Shown here: positions 51,046 through 56,447 of the stretch, one piece after another
How the letters are laid out: each line of letters begins with the position of its first letter
Numbering within the stretch: the stretch's first letter is position 1
IMG/VR virus record: IMGVR_UViG_3300032294_002710
Span: 1 to 64,000 of that record
Source of the DNA: a virus
Strand: one strand, 5' to 3'
DNA: 64,000 nucleotides
Made by a program: the position numbers and the translations under genes
The notes under the pieces: model-generated
The model's input: the letters and a program-made list of their open reading frames with translations, nothing else
Told to the model about the DNA's origin: nothing
Databases searched by the model: none

Positions 51046-51064
51046 TAATTAGTTTCATATTAAC

Positions 51065-51092
51065 AAAAACCCTCCAATTGGAGGGTTTTTTG
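51065..51092 (+). terminator. Intrinsic terminator of the capsid gene
   Basis: AACCCTCC (51068-51075) pairs with GGAGGGTT (51080-51087) around AATT, followed by a T run. Confidence 0.88.
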
Positions 51093-51102
51093 TTTTATAT
51101 AA

Positions 51103-51116: not shown

Positions 51117-51512
51117 ATGATAAATAAATACGAGAAGTTTTTAGAATCTAAAAAAGATAAATTTCCTAATATCCAGACAAAAAAATTAGATGATTTTAGT
51201 ATTTTAATAGGTAAAGATGCTGTATCAAATGATTTTTTGACAACTAATATGGCGAATGATGATGACTTGTGGTTTCATGCAGCTGGTGTTCCGGGAAGTC
51301 ATATTGTTATAAAGGTAAGTGATAAGTTACCTATGGAAAAACATATTGAAGAAGTCGCAAAGTTGGCGGCTAAAAACTCGAAAGCACCAAAAGGTGTTAA
51401 AGTTAAGGTAGTCTATTGTAAAGCTAAGTTTGTTAAGAAAAATTCAGATATGAAACCTGGTCAAGTTAGTGTAGATTATAAAAACGCTCAAGAAATAGTT
51501 GTAGAAAATTAA
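51117..51512 (+). CDS. Stand-alone NFACT-R (RqcH/NEMF-type) domain protein with targeting-like N-terminus
   Basis: 131 residues. After MINKYEKFLESKKDKF comes a complete NFACT-R domain: SILIGKDAVSNDFLTTNMANDDDLWFHAAGVPGSHIVIKV, with the hallmark D-x-W-F-H and GSH motifs, then a helix EVAKLAAKNSKAPKGVKV and a final strand. In RqcH/NEMF proteins this domain sits beside NFACT-N and the coiled coil that bind stalled 60S/50S-tRNA complexes and promote alanine tailing. Here it is alone, as in some small bacterial proteins. The function is presumably in ribosome or RNA quality control, and the N-terminal FLE signature suggests it could be packaged (inference). Confidence 0.8.
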   Translation: MINKYEKFLESKKDKFPNIQTKKLDDFSILIGKDAVSNDFLTTNMANDDDLWFHAAGVPGSHIVIKVSDKLPMEKHIEEVAKLAAKNSKAPKGVKVKVVYCKAKFVKKNSDMKPGQVSVDYKNAQEIVVEN

Positions 51513-51537: not shown

Positions 51538-52896
51538 ATGGCAGATCCAATTATCTGGTTTAGTGATAAATTACATGATATAATAGATGATATAAATGGT
51601 CCAGTTGCTGAAGCAATGCTTAAGATGTTAGATGGAAACTATTTAACAAAAAATGAATTAAAAATTAAAAAAGTAGATGTTTCTGTTACCGATTGGAATT
51701 TTGATGTTACTGTTGGTAGTGATGGCCAAGTTCCTGTAAAGCAGCGAATGAAAGTTGGTAAGTTTATAAGACATTTCTTTGGTAGTACATTTACCGATAA
51801 ACAGATTTATGACTTTACAATGGCTTATAATAATTTGAAGAAGGGAATTCCTGCTTCTACTCAAACGGCTAAAGTTAGCTATAAAAAGGTAGAAGTTCCA
51901 GAATTTTCATATAATCCAAAAGATGTTAGATCTACATTTTTATCTCTAACAACTAAGACATATCCACACGGACATGAAGAAGAAGTTTTAAAGTTCTTAC
52001 CAAGCCTTGAAAAGGATCAGTTTGGAAATTATTATAAAATAATTGGCAAATCAGAAACAATGTTTACATCACACTTAGATACAGCTGATAGACAACAAAA
52101 AAATGTTAATGTCTATAGTACAATATTAGCAGATGGTGATGAAATGTTCGTTACTGATAATAAATCTATATTGGGTGCAGATGATAAATCAGGTGTATCT
52201 GTTATGTTGTATATGATGGCTCATAATATTCCAGGTGTTTACTACTTCTTTATTGGAGAAGAGAGAGGAGGAATAGGTTCGCATCAGGTTGCTGGTGTTT
52301 TTGAAACAGTTGAACATTTAAAAGGCATGAAGAGATGTGTATCTTTTGATAGAAGAAATTATTTTTCAATAATAACACATCAATTAGGTAGACAATGTTG
52401 TTCAGATCAGTTTGCTCAAGCTTTAGCAAACGAATTGAATAAAGGTGGATTATCCATCGCTTTAGATCCAACAGGTGTTTATACTGACTCCGCTTCTTTT
52501 ATAGATGAGATACCAGAGTGTACGAATATCTCAGTTGGATATTTTTCAGAACATACTGATAGAGAAAGTCAAAACATTTCATATTTAGAAAGATTAGCAA
52601 AATCTTGTCTAAATGTTAAATGGGAAGAACTTCCAACTGTTAAAAAAGTTGGATTTGATGAGGAAATAATGAGAAAGTATAAGCCATTTATTTCAGATTT
52701 TAAATCAACTATATTTAATCTTGAAACAAAGATGGTTAGTGAGTATGGAAGAGCATTTATTAAAATTGATGTTGATGATCCAGATCCTGCTATTGTTTTT
52801 CAAGATTTAAAATCAGTAGAATCATTATTATCTAAGCATAAAATGGATCCAGATATTCAATTTGATGATAATTATATAAAAATAGAACTAAAATAA
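51538..52896 (+). CDS. Zinc metallopeptidase of the M20/M28/M42 type
   Basis: 452 residues: an unrelated N-terminal domain of about 130 residues, then a peptidase domain. Metal-site motifs occur in order: TSHLDTA (His, Asp), ILGADDKSG (bridging Asp), GEERGGIGSHQ (catalytic Glu and metal Glu), SFDRRNYF (Asp) and a late His in SEHTDRE. This is the co-catalytic zinc aminopeptidase arrangement. It directly follows the NFACT-R gene, and its stop overlaps the next ATG. Possible roles are trimming tagged or released peptides or digesting host proteins. The target is unknown. Confidence 0.8.
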   Translation: MADPIIWFSDKLHDIIDDINGPVAEAMLKMLDGNYLTKNELKIKKVDVSVTDWNFDVTVGSDGQVPVKQRMKVGKFIRHFFGSTFTDKQIYDFTMAYNNLKKGIPASTQTAKVSYKKVEVPEFSYNPKDVRSTFLSLTTKTYPHGHEEEVLKFLPSLEKDQFGNYYKIIGKSETMFTSHLDTADRQQKNVNVYSTILADGDEMFVTDNKSILGADDKSGVSVMLYMMAHNIPGVYYFFIGEERGGIGSHQVAGVFETVEHLKGMKRCVSFDRRNYFSIITHQLGRQCCSDQFAQALANELNKGGLSIALDPTGVYTDSASFIDEIPECTNISVGYFSEHTDRESQNISYLERLAKSCLNVKWEELPTVKKVGFDEEIMRKYKPFISDFKSTIFNLETKMVSEYGRAFIKIDVDDPDPAIVFQDLKSVESLLSKHKMDPDIQFDDNYIKIELK

Positions 52897-53363
52897 TGAT
52901 AAAGAATGTTAAATTACAAAATATAATTCTTGAAACAAACAGAACTTTTCAAGACGGATATGAAGACGACTATGAGGATGACTATTTTGATCAGTATGGT
53001 AAAGAAGACTTTATTGATGATGATGAGATATCTGAAGAGGAAGAAGAGGATAATCTTGGTTATCTTATAAGAACATTTTTAAGTGCTAGAGGAATTCGTT
53101 CCTATGTTGAAACTGATGGTAAGGATGTTATTATATATGTTTATTTAAATAAAAAAGAGAAAATAAAAAATCTAACTAAAATTTTTGACGTTGTAGTTAA
53201 TAATATGAAGGTACAAATGTTTGAAGATTATGATTTAGAAACTGAGTTGTATGAAACAAAAGAAGGTGAGCATATATTCTCTTTTACTTTCTATGCTGAT
53301 GGAAGTATAGATAAAGATGATTATTCGGATCAAGAAGATTTTACTTCAAGGATACCTTTTTAA
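52896..53363 (+). CDS. Small very acidic protein, 155 aa
   Basis: MIKNVKLQNIILETNRTF is followed by a dense acidic stretch (YEDDYEDDYFDQYGKEDFIDDDEISEEEEED) and a small alpha/beta domain with a KKEKIKNL basic helix. The start overlaps the peptidase stop, so the two are coupled. The IILE segment near the N-terminus is a weak version of the shared signature. Function unknown; the acidic part suggests a nucleic-acid mimic or scaffold-like role (inference). Confidence 0.55.
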   Translation: MIKNVKLQNIILETNRTFQDGYEDDYEDDYFDQYGKEDFIDDDEISEEEEEDNLGYLIRTFLSARGIRSYVETDGKDVIIYVYLNKKEKIKNLTKIFDVVVNNMKVQMFEDYDLETELYETKEGEHIFSFTFYADGSIDKDDYSDQEDFTSRIPF

Positions 53364-53380
53364 AAATAGAAAATAAACTA

Positions 53381-53412
53381 TTTGGTGGTTTAATATATAA
53401 TGTGTATATTTG
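53381..53412 (+). promoter_or_regulatory. Bacteroidota-type promoter of the tmRNA gene
   Basis: TTTG at 53381-53384, a 20-base spacer, and TATATTTG at 53405-53412 match the Bacteroidota -33/-7 consensus. The RNA 5' end (GGGGATG at 53426) is 14 bases downstream. The same arrangement with the same spacing precedes the release-factor gene. Confidence 0.75.
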
Positions 53413-53425
53413 TTAAATCTTATTC

Positions 53426-53799
53426 GGGGATGATATGAATTGATTCGCAGAGTAGAGATGATTAAGCAGGCATCGGTTTGGTAAAGTCCGATTAAAATAA
53501 ATTATCAAAATCGTAAACGGAAACGTTACAAATGAAGTAGGAACCAGTGAAGATTTAGTAGCTGCTCTACAAAACAACTTGCTCACTGTGAATGAGCTTG
53601 AAGTAGCCTAATCTTAGGATACATTCTAAAAATTCACACTGAATCACAACAGTATAAATAGTGATAGTTTTTTGTTAGAGTGTTTTTGAGTCGAAACAAC
53701 TATCTATTTTGTAAGTTACAGAAAAACTTTCTAAGCTTGTGAACGATTAACCGTTTTTAACTGAGGAAGACTCCGGTTCGTTACCGGACATCTCCACTA
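53426..53799 (+). ncRNA. ssrA: Transfer-messenger RNA (tmRNA) with an unusually long tag frame
   Basis: About 370 bases, the usual tmRNA length. The ends pair as a 7-bp acceptor stem, GGGGATG (53426-53432) with CATCTCC (53789-53795), including the third-position G-U that marks alanine charging. The 3' end is A-CTA, so CCA is not encoded. A T-arm (TCCGG, loop TTCGTTA, CCGGA at 53772-53788) precedes it; the loop lacks the usual A58. The 5' part (GATTAAGCAGGCATCGG...CCGATTAA) resembles bacterial tmRNA. After an upstream TAA at 53498, an open frame runs to TAA at 53609-53611. If resumption is at GTA 53513, the tag has 32 residues, beginning VNGNV, containing LVAA, and ending NELEVA. It frees stalled ribosomes and marks the product for proteolysis. 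Confidence 0.85.
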
Positions 53800-53828: not shown

Positions 53829-53860
53829 ACACCAACTCAAAAGGTTGGTGTTTCTTTTTA
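53829..53860. terminator. Terminator after the tmRNA gene
   Basis: ACACCAAC (53829-53836) pairs with GTTGGTGT (53844-53851), followed by TTCTTTTT. It is also close to the stop of the convergent gene at 53858. Confidence 0.8.
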
Positions 53861-55697: not shown

Positions 55698-56447
55698 ATG
55701 GACTTTCAAGGATATTTTAATACCGTTTTTAAAAATGTAAAATTTGAAGGATTAGAAAATTTTAATCTATCATCATTTGATCTTTATGAAAAAAGTTCAA
55801 TACAAATTTCTTTACCACCATCTGTGTCTGAGAATGAGGAGTTTTATTTAAACTCTCTATTTGAGACTATTAGAAATCAGATCTCATTAGATGCTCAAAA
55901 AAGGATTTTAGAATCTATTCATAAAAATCCATCAATGTATTTTATTGATATTATGAATTCGCAAGAGAAGTCTAAAAGTAATTTACTTACAGACTATGAT
56001 ACACATGTGTCTTTAGTTAGAGGAATAACATCTCAAATATTGAGACTTAATATTAAAAATATAGTTTCTAATGGTAAGATTCTATCTGAGTATATTGTAG
56101 ATTCTCCGGCTTTTTCACAAGAACCATTAAGTAATAAATTATCAACATCTAATACATTTACTAAGTATGGTAAATTAATTAATATTAATGTCTATATGGA
56201 TTCATTTATGAAATGGAATGATGATTTTATACTTTCTTATGATGATATCTATTATCATATAAAAGATCTGAGTCTTGATATTATTAGTGATTCAAGATTT
56301 GCTCCTCTTTTAAAGGTTAGTTTTAATTTTGCATTTAGAGTAGATAATCCGGGTAAAATATGGGTAATTGATAGTATTAGTTCTGGCGGTTATGTTCATT
56401 ATAAGTCAACTTTAAGAGATAAAAAGATTGATAGTCTATTGGATTAG
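55698..56447 (+). CDS. Hypothetical protein, 249 aa
   Basis: A soluble protein, four bases behind the methylase gene, with alternating strands and helices (DFQGYFNTVFKNVKFEGLENF, GKLININVYMDSFMKWNDDF, LLKVSFNFAFRVDNPGKIWV). It has the look of a virion assembly protein, but I find no specific family motif. The stop is followed by an AT-rich gap with a new promoter-like element. Confidence 0.55.
   Translation: MDFQGYFNTVFKNVKFEGLENFNLSSFDLYEKSSIQISLPPSVSENEEFYLNSLFETIRNQISLDAQKRILESIHKNPSMYFIDIMNSQEKSKSNLLTDYDTHVSLVRGITSQILRLNIKNIVSNGKILSEYIVDSPAFSQEPLSNKLSTSNTFTKYGKLININVYMDSFMKWNDDFILSYDDIYYHIKDLSLDIISDSRFAPLLKVSFNFAFRVDNPGKIWVIDSISSGGYVHYKSTLRDKKIDSLLD

What the first reader, a model, noticed from the sequence alone, without database searches (positions are those of the whole stretch)
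53426..53799. Phage-encoded tmRNA with an atypically long, internally degron-like tag
Acceptor stem with the third-position G-U, T-arm and a 5' region like bacterial tmRNA are visible. The only open frame in the right place gives a tag of about 32 residues if it resumes at GTA 53513, ending LEVA. Most bacterial tags are about 8-20 residues and end LAA. An internal LVAA at residues 15-18 looks like an older tag end that was extended. A phage tmRNA could rescue ribosomes during infection while sending products to a different fate.
Basis: partly seen in the sequence, partly recalled or inferred. Interest (0 to 1): 0.75.

Follow-up and report, generated by a model that had tools for sequence, protein, structure and literature searches.

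The report
Huge-phage tmRNA with long tag
This giant-phage fragment carries a real but strongly divergent tmRNA, the RNA that frees stuck ribosomes and tags their unfinished proteins; its 32-residue tag is kept across many related phages, and the tRNA/tmRNA finder ARAGORN misses almost all members of the family.

Summary
Rfam's tmRNA model matches exactly 53426-53799 (38.2 bits, E 1e-12, below the gathering score of 47); ARAGORN finds nothing. Relatives settle it. I collected 61 distinct full-length copies, relatives from huge Bacteroidota-type phages included. All 61 keep a 7-bp acceptor stem, G3-U70 and discriminator A, and the same tag frame of 29-32 residues. Two exceed Rfam's gathering score. 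Tag residues 1-20 are under protein-level constraint. The tag ORF also holds two hairpins with compensatory changes, so the internal "LVAA" is not an old tag end. ARAGORN misses 60 of 61, probably because the D-loop/T-loop elbow is remodelled. The RNA has its own Bacteroidota-type promoter and lies in a conserved cluster with an orphan RqcH NFACT-R domain. Both complete relatives with this tmRNA also encode SmpB, several ClpP and a ClpC-like ATPase. Most likely it is a working phage-owned trans-translation RNA. Phage tmRNA and SmpB were already reported in huge phages; this subclass, its conserved long tag and its structure are a new variant.

The parts
53381..53412 (+). Bacteroidota-type promoter: TTTG (53381-53384), 20-nt spacer, TATATTTG (53405-53412), 13 nt before the tmRNA
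   Evidence: pattern TTTG-N18-22-TANNTTTG within 120 nt upstream in 30 of 60 distinct tmRNAs, 0.7% in random windows of the same loci; promoter consensus recalled
53426..53799 (+). tmRNA (ssrA), divergent subclass
   Evidence: RF00023 38.2 bits E 1e-12; 61 distinct copies, two above the gathering score
53426..53432 (+). acceptor stem 5' strand GGGGATG, pairs with 53789-53795 (G3-U70)
   Evidence: 7 of 7 pairs and G3-U70 in 61 of 61
53433..53449 (+). D-loop region; U18 = 53436, G19 = 53437 (consensus GG lost)
53472..53506 (+). pseudoknot PK1 before the resume codon: 53472-53476/53488-53492 and 53480-53482/53504-53506
   Evidence: helices 2 and 3: 100% and 91.7% of cells paired, with changes on both sides
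53513..53611 (+). tag reading frame: resume codon GTA to TAA, VNGNVTNEVGTSEDLVAALQNNLLTVNELEVA
53537..53570 (+). hairpin HP-A inside the tag frame (codons 9-20)
   Evidence: codon 12/codon 17 association
53581..53597 (+). hairpin HP-B inside the tag frame (codons 23-29)
   Evidence: tail more stable than synonymous recodings
53638..53665 (+). pseudoknot PK2 after the stop: 53638-53641/53650-53653 and 53643-53647/53661-53665
   Evidence: helices 7 and 8
53772..53788 (+). T-arm: stem UCCGG/CCGGA, loop UUCGUUA
   Evidence: (99% paired, all five pairs covary)
53789..53799 (+). acceptor 3' strand, discriminator A (53796), CTA in place of CCA
53829..53859 (+). intrinsic terminator ACACCAAC..GTTGGTGT + T-run
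   Evidence: sequence; terminator-like hairpin downstream in 52 of 60
51117..51512 (+). orphan NFACT-R domain protein (131 aa), homologous to the C-terminal domain of RqcH
   Evidence: PF05670 E 5.1e-17; RqcH 7aqc E 1.4e-22 with alignment A1
51538..52896 (+). PepT/M20-like peptidase, conserved between NFACT-R and the tmRNA
   Evidence: phrog_4191 'peptidase' E 4.4e-68; TIGR01883 PepT-like E 3.6e-07, below cut-off
52896..53363 (+). small conserved protein of unknown function, next to the tmRNA
   Evidence: synteny; no family

Best explanation
A functional, phage-encoded one-piece tmRNA of a divergent subclass found in Mahaphage-type huge phages of Bacteroidota. It is transcribed from its own host-type promoter, charged with alanine (G3-U70), and with SmpB (phage-encoded in the larger relatives) enters ribosomes stalled on broken mRNAs. 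Translation resumes at GTA 53513 and adds Ala plus 32 encoded residues before stopping at UAA. The first 20 residues are kept as peptide. The tail is shaped mainly by an RNA hairpin, but always ends in A or V, like a C-terminal degron. Tagged products are probably degraded by Clp proteases, perhaps the phage's own ClpC-like/ClpP enzymes. Shown by comparison: RNA identity, structure, tag frame, constraint, synteny, co-encoded SmpB and Clp genes in relatives. Inferred: charging, ribosome rescue, degradation, and the protease.
For: Rfam match. 61 distinct copies with 7/7 acceptor pairs, G3-U70 and discriminator A in 61 of 61. L071 74.6 and L074 58.0 bits exceed the gathering score of 47, and ARAGORN reports L071's tag as GNTNEVASKEELVFALRNNQLKVNEVASVA, the same frame starting two codons later. 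Structure: 91.1% of 1850 cells paired against 77.2% in shuffles (0 of 500) and 34-46% when slid; 257 double-sided changes against 79. Tag frame open in 61 of 61; pN/pS in codons 1-20 of 0.42-0.48 in frame, 0.90-1.51 in the other frames. Promoter 30 of 60, terminator-like hairpin 52 of 60. SmpB in both tmRNA-bearing complete relatives and in 4 of 4 tmRNA contigs of 385 kb or more. ClpP 3 and 2 copies in those two relatives, with Ser and His motifs in four of the five copies; ClpC-like ATPases with a UVR motif. 11 further distinct copies in 18 more loci, 18 of 18 with a 29-32 aa tag.
Against: No expression or biochemical data. The window copy and most relatives lack a consensus T-loop, the window copy and both complete relatives do not reach Rfam's gathering score, and CCA is encoded in only 4 of 60, so charging depends on tail addition by a CCA-adding enzyme. 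No SmpB was found in the 135-kb fragment holding the window, which is incomplete. The tail (codons 21-32) shows no frame-specific constraint (0.68 against 0.69 and 0.74). HP-A is not more stable than synonymous recodings (mean z +0.17). The tagging-degradation step has no direct support.
Confidence: 0.8

Rival explanations
1. A tmRNA-derived RNA that has lost trans-translation and acts as a decoy or inhibitor of the host tmRNA system, like the tRNA-like-domain-only tmRNA of mycobacteriophage DS6A.
For: The elbow is remodelled and a CDS-less phage tmRNA has been reported; an RNA of that kind inhibits tmRNA (PMC11915505, PMC4131195).
Against: The tag frame is open in 61 of 61 and under protein-level constraint. 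PK1 and a resume region with -1 triplet GTC in 32 of 61 are kept. The phages keep SmpB.
Confidence: 0.07
2. The conserved frame is an ordinary small gene overlapping a structured RNA, translated by normal initiation.
For: The frame is long and conserved; 17 of 61 have some ATG/GTG/TTG in frame upstream of codon 19.
Against: 44 of 61 have none; the frame begins at the aligned resume position just after PK1; the flanking RNA folds as a complete tmRNA.
Confidence: 0.03
3. A functional tmRNA whose tag is not a degron but a sorting or marking peptide (for example inactivating host products or steering them away from the virion).
For: Constraint lies in residues 1-20, not in the last residues that proteases usually read; C-termini vary (VA, LV, TV, TA and others); no bacterial tmRNA with this tag was found.
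Against: The last residue is A or V in 61 of 61, as expected of a C-terminal degron; complete relatives bring their own ClpP and a ClpC-like ATPase.
Confidence: 0.15

Closest known systems
Bacterial one-piece tmRNA (Rfam RF00023, ssrA)
   Same: Acceptor with G3-U70, T-arm, D-loop, PK1 before the resume codon, tag frame ending in TAA, later pseudoknot; two family members exceed the gathering score.
   Different: Tag 29-32 aa against a most frequent length of 10 (PMC11915505, section read); two hairpins inside the tag frame; elbow pair 18-55 usually A-G instead of G-U; T-loop mostly GGCAGUN.
tmRNA and SmpB of huge phages (Al-Shayeb et al. 2020, PMC7162821; passages seen)
   Different: tmRNAs there were called with ARAGORN, which detects 1 of 61 of this subclass. 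The passages seen describe no tag, structure or linkage; its supplements were not read.
Other phage tmRNAs (Bacillus phage G, mycobacteriophages Bxz1 and others; pelagiphage/methylophage two-piece tmRNA)
   Same: Phage-encoded ssrA (PMC4131195 passages; PMC9004378 passages).
   Different: Melnitz-type is two-piece with a glutamine riboswitch; none is reported in the passages seen with this tag. The Bxz1 tag is recalled as long too (not checked).
RqcH/NEMF (bacterial ribosome quality control)
   Same: The neighbour 51117-51512 is homologous to the RqcH C-terminal NFACT-R domain (E 1.4e-22).
   Different: Only NFACT-R; NFACT-N, HhH and coiled-coil parts are absent, so it is not an RqcH.

Membership tests
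tmRNA | tRNA-like acceptor with alanine identity (G3-U70, 7 bp, discriminator A) | tested here: met
   61 of 61
tmRNA | tag reading frame entered without a start codon, ending at a stop | tested here: met
   open in 61 of 61; 44 of 61 without any in-frame start before codon 19; constraint in codons 1-20
tmRNA | PK1 just upstream of the resume codon | tested here: met
   helices 2 and 3, 100% and 91.7% paired with double-sided changes
tmRNA | T-stem with consensus T-loop (UUCRA) and D-loop GG | tested here: not met
   T-stem met (99%). Consensus T-loop UUCRA in 2 of the 45 aligned copies (L066, L071); the window has UUCGUUA. I do not count the loop sequence as defining, because the 18-55 pair changes on both sides in step and copies with and without it share the tag.
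tmRNA | score above Rfam's gathering threshold | tested here: inconclusive
   window 38.2 < 47; L009 and L010 no match at E 0.01; L071 74.6 and L074 58.0 above, L066 46, L031 34.6, L092 27.9, L098 23.2 below
tmRNA | works with SmpB | not testable with these tools
   SmpB genes present in relatives, passing NCBI equivalog cut-offs for L013; interaction not tested; none in the 135-kb window record
tmRNA | tag directs proteolysis | not testable with these tools
   C-terminal A or V in 61 of 61; ClpP and ClpC-like ATPase in relatives
RqcH | NFACT-N, HhH, coiled coil and NFACT-R | tested here: not met
   only NFACT-R in a 131-aa protein

The most novel reading that the evidence does not exclude
These phages carry a complete trans-translation and proteolysis pathway of their own, running beside the host's: a remodelled tmRNA with a phage-specific long tag, matching SmpB, an N-domain-less ClpC-like unfoldase with several ClpP that recognise that tag, a PepT-like peptidase to finish the peptides, and an orphan NFACT-R protein as a new rescue cofactor. 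It would recycle ribosomes and amino acids from broken (host) mRNAs during infection.
Probability: 0.3. Interest if true: 0.82.

Novelty: new variant of a known kind. Interest (0 to 1): 0.62.

Why it matters
A whole subclass of phage tmRNAs, frequent enough to appear in over 60 distinct copies from public viral contigs, is almost invisible to ARAGORN, so surveys of phage ribosome rescue made with it undercount. The tag is phage-specific as far as searched, long and conserved, giving a ready antigen or mass-spectrometry signature to see which proteins are tagged during infection. Hairpins inside a tag frame and a double-sided change of the 18-55 elbow pair are testable departures from textbook tmRNA, and the linked NFACT-R gene suggests a possible meeting point of trans-translation and RQC.

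Tried and rejected
Chance or pseudogene: rejected by the 61 copies. Short normal tag with another resume codon: not found; ARAGORN on L071 differs by only two codons. Internal LVAA as an ancestral end: rejected. Bacterial origin of the tag: one scan of 84,980 species genomes gave 64 pattern stretches and no relative; the scan looks only for one peptide pattern. tmRNA in the 735-kb phage LR756501: none with RF00023 over cut-off, the tag profile, or BLAST; the best BLAST place lies in a region with no tmRNA by profile or ARAGORN, and L021 did not look like a tmRNA on reading. Similar peptides elsewhere: one hit each in two complete relatives, the tag itself; no solved-structure match worth reporting. 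RF00023 over the window's record listed weaker tRNA-like places but not the tmRNA itself: its first look misses it. Lon protease: none in 4 records. A full-length covariance model was not built because the tool's size limits made calibration unlikely; profile HMMs were used.

The first tag extraction missed 11 of 61 tags, misread one (L136, 9 aa) and truncated another (L125, 25 aa); the alignment-based one search replaced it. The regex misassigns the D-loop of L073 (listed U18, by eye A18) and takes the second of two T-loop candidates for L031 (by eye U55); I give both versions in the full report. The ClpP extraction picked a wrong frame for L173 and L178; they are not used.

Full report
1. 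The observation. Rfam's tmRNA model RF00023 matches window 53426-53799 end to end (38.2 bits, E 1e-12 for 7 kb searched; gathering score 47). ARAGORN reports nothing. The acceptor is GGGGATG/CATCTCC with G3-U70, followed by discriminator A and CTA instead of CCA. The frame from GTA 53513 gives VNGNVTNEVGTSEDLVAALQNNLLTVNELEVA and ends at TAA 53609.

2. Where it lies. The window is part of an unnamed 134,852-base virus record. A T4-like portal, head protease, Gp23-type capsid protein, NADAR protein and D12 methyltransferase surround the RNA. Similar DNA lies in uncultured phage records LR756502 (642 kb) and LR745206 (635 kb), at 72% identity over the tmRNA; more distant DNA similarity exists to LR756501/LR756503 (735 kb). 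These sizes correspond to the largest genomes of Al-Shayeb et al. 2020, a Mahaphage clade with Bacteroidetes hosts predicted (PMC7162821, passages seen).

3. A family. Searching IMG/VR contigs with the neighbouring NFACT-R protein gave 57 loci and with the tag 63 loci; a profile found the RNA in nearly all. From 108 loci with full-length hits I took 61 distinct sequences, the window's included; partial hits at contig ends were dropped. A later scan gave 73 loci; all 18 of its loci not seen before carry the RNA with a 29-32 aa tag, 11 of them distinct from the set (two of these 11, L144 and L151, gave no readable 3' end). Counts below use the 61 unless stated.

4. It is a tmRNA. All 61 have 7 of 7 acceptor pairs, G3-U70 and discriminator A; CCA is encoded in 4 of 60 (one copy is cut). 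In the six loci tested, RF00023 gives 74.6 (L071), 58.0 (L074), 46 (L066), 34.6 (L031), 27.9 (L092) and 23.2 bits (L098), so two pass the curated cut-off. The complete relatives L009 and L010 gave no match at E 0.01: the family spans the detection limit. ARAGORN with 300 nt of context finds 1 of 61, L071, with tag GNTNEVASKEELVFALRNNQLKVNEVASVA, i.e. the same frame from two codons further on. Whether translation resumes at codon 1 (GTA) or 3 is therefore not certain. Codon 1 follows the -1 triplet GTC in 32 of 61, the triplet recalled for E. coli.

5. The tag. 61 of 61 frames are open: 41 of 31 aa, 10 of 29, 9 of 32, 1 of 30; 45 distinct peptides; stop TAA in 57 and TAG in 4. The last residue is V (34) or A (27); the first codon is GTA 49, TTA 9, ATA 2, GCA 1. 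17 of 61 have some in-frame ATG/GTG/TTG upstream of codon 19, 44 do not. On the 49 distinct tag DNA sequences, pN/pS in frame is 0.42 for codons 1-9, 0.48 for 10-20 and 0.68 for 21-32; the two other frames give 0.90-0.93, 0.93-1.51 and 0.69-0.74. A set thinned to 25 gives the same picture. So residues 1-20 are conserved as peptide, the tail is not measurably so. A published range for tags is 8-35 aa (PMC8012679, passage), and the most frequent length is 10 (PMC11915505, section read): this tag is long but inside the known range.

6. Hairpins inside the tag frame. The alignment of 45 of the 61 (A3) folds with hairpin HP-A over codons 9-20. Codon 12 and codon 17 go together: CGT/GCG 30, CGC/GCG 1, AGT/GCT 19, AAT/TTT 6, AAA/TTT 4, CGT/TCG 1, so at least two of three pairs hold in 61 of 61. 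R, S, N or K at position 12 is thus tied to A, F or S at 17, and R12 with GCG occurs with both GT and AS at positions 10-11. In the 52 tags of QNN type, codon 24 and codon 28 are ATC/GAT 25, CTC/GAG 16, CTT/GAG 8, TTC/GAA 2, TTA/GAA 1: hairpin HP-B. On nine helices of my drawing, 91.1% of cells are paired (shuffles 77.2%, slid versions 34-46%), 30 of 42 pairs change on both sides, with 257 such cells against 79. I drew the structure from these sequences, which favours it over slid versions. HP-B is 78.7% paired because the 29-aa tags use another register that was not scored. The tail is more stable than synonymous recodings (mean z -1.6; 19 of 49 at p <= 0.05), HP-A is not (mean z +0.17; 0 of 49). 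The internal LVAA lies in the 3' arm of HP-A, which explains it without an ancestral tag end.

7. The elbow. Consensus UUCRA T-loops occur in 2 of 45. As computed on 61, residues 18 and 55 are A-G 46, G-U 7, U-U 4, U-G 4; with L073 and L031 corrected by eye, A-G 47, G-U 7, U-U 5, U-G 2. A-U and G-G do not occur. G19 and C56 were used as anchors and so are not evidence. L135/L136 carry G-U although other tags of the same 29-aa type carry A-G, so the pair has probably changed on both sides more than once. I read this as a kept but rebuilt D-loop/T-loop contact; it probably explains why ARAGORN fails.

8. Expression. A Bacteroidota-type promoter (TTTG-N18-22-TANNTTTG; consensus recalled) lies 9-26 nt upstream in 30 of 60, against 0.7% of random windows; a terminator-like hairpin follows in 52 of 60 (no control was run for the terminator test).

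9. Neighbours. Head protease, capsid protein, NFACT-R, PepT-like peptidase, a small protein, tmRNA, NADAR and D12 methyltransferase recur in this order in most loci. Of the 57 NFACT-R loci, 50 have the tmRNA, two of them partial (L030, L075); in the 7 others (L033, L037, L039, L041, L051, L056, L063) the contig ends before or at the expected place, judged from sister loci. In a few (L034, L048-L050) the tmRNA is inverted relative to NFACT-R. L091, L092 and L098 carry the tmRNA in another gene context without NFACT-R, and L135/L136 lack NFACT-R within 3.9 kb, so the linkage is strong but not obligatory. NFACT-R matches the C-terminal domain of RqcH (7aqc E 1.4e-22). In the phage collection, 13 records match it; only two are huge phages, and I take most of the others for bacterial or contaminating DNA (inference).

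10. Partners in complete genomes. SmpB: LR756502, LR745206 and LR756501, not the 135-kb window record. ClpP: 3, 2 and 0 copies in the three, none in the window record. Lon: none in the four. A Clp ATPase in all three; in the two tmRNA phages it has a UVR motif and no Clp_N domain (ClpC-like; the sequence reads VGF where I recall the ClpP-binding loop), in the 735-kb phage it has Clp_N and no UVR among the families shown. NCBIfam's ClpB and ClpA models hit the two ClpC-like proteins strongly but below their cut-offs. In 15 contigs with the tmRNA or NFACT-R (L033 shows only NFACT-R) ClpP occurs in 9 and SmpB in 5; of the four of at least 385 kb, SmpB in 4 and ClpP in 3. Most are fragments.

11. 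Mechanism. Best reading: alanine-charged tmRNA plus SmpB rescues ribosomes on broken mRNA, adds Ala + 32 residues, and the product is degraded through its A/V-ending tail. Phages break host mRNA, so freeing ribosomes and recycling peptides would serve the infection (inference). Rivals: decoy RNA, non-degron tag, ordinary small gene; see the fields.

12. Novelty. tmRNA and SmpB in huge phages are in print (PMC7162821). I found no paper on this tag, the in-frame hairpins, the elbow change or a phage NFACT-R in ten library searches; these cover only open-licence PMC, of which I saw listings and passages, not supplements. Hence: new variant of a known kind.

Noticed in passing
window 51117-51512: Stand-alone RqcH-type NFACT-R protein in huge phages, with the tmRNA nearby in 50 of 57 loci; a possible phage ribosome-quality-control factor.
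   Followed up: partly
window 51061-51096: Bidirectional terminator (AAAACCCTCCAATTGGAGGGTTTTTT) between the capsid gene and NFACT-R; Rfam reports it as a weak Phe_leader on both strands.
   Followed up: no
window 55698-56447: Protein whose homology search also hits the place of the capsid protein at 20-27% identity in many loci: probably a shortened Gp23 paralogue.
   Followed up: no
LR756501 (L011, L012, L170): The 735-kb phage has SmpB and a ClpB-like ATPase but no ClpP and no recognisable tmRNA: either a still more divergent tmRNA or a SmpB without one.
   Followed up: partly
L091, L092, L098: The same tmRNA and tag in another, AT-rich phage lineage without the usual neighbours, with D-loop GG.
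   Followed up: partly
LR756502 (L163, L165, L167), LR745206 (L164, L166): Several ClpP per phage genome; L163, L164 and L165 keep MIHQP, L166 has MIHQV, and a shorter, divergent ClpP-like protein (L167) lacks both motifs.
   Followed up: no
window record G000 about 122-134 kb: Several short tRNA-like places outside the window, seen only as weak RF00023 matches; possibly a tRNA cluster.
   Followed up: no
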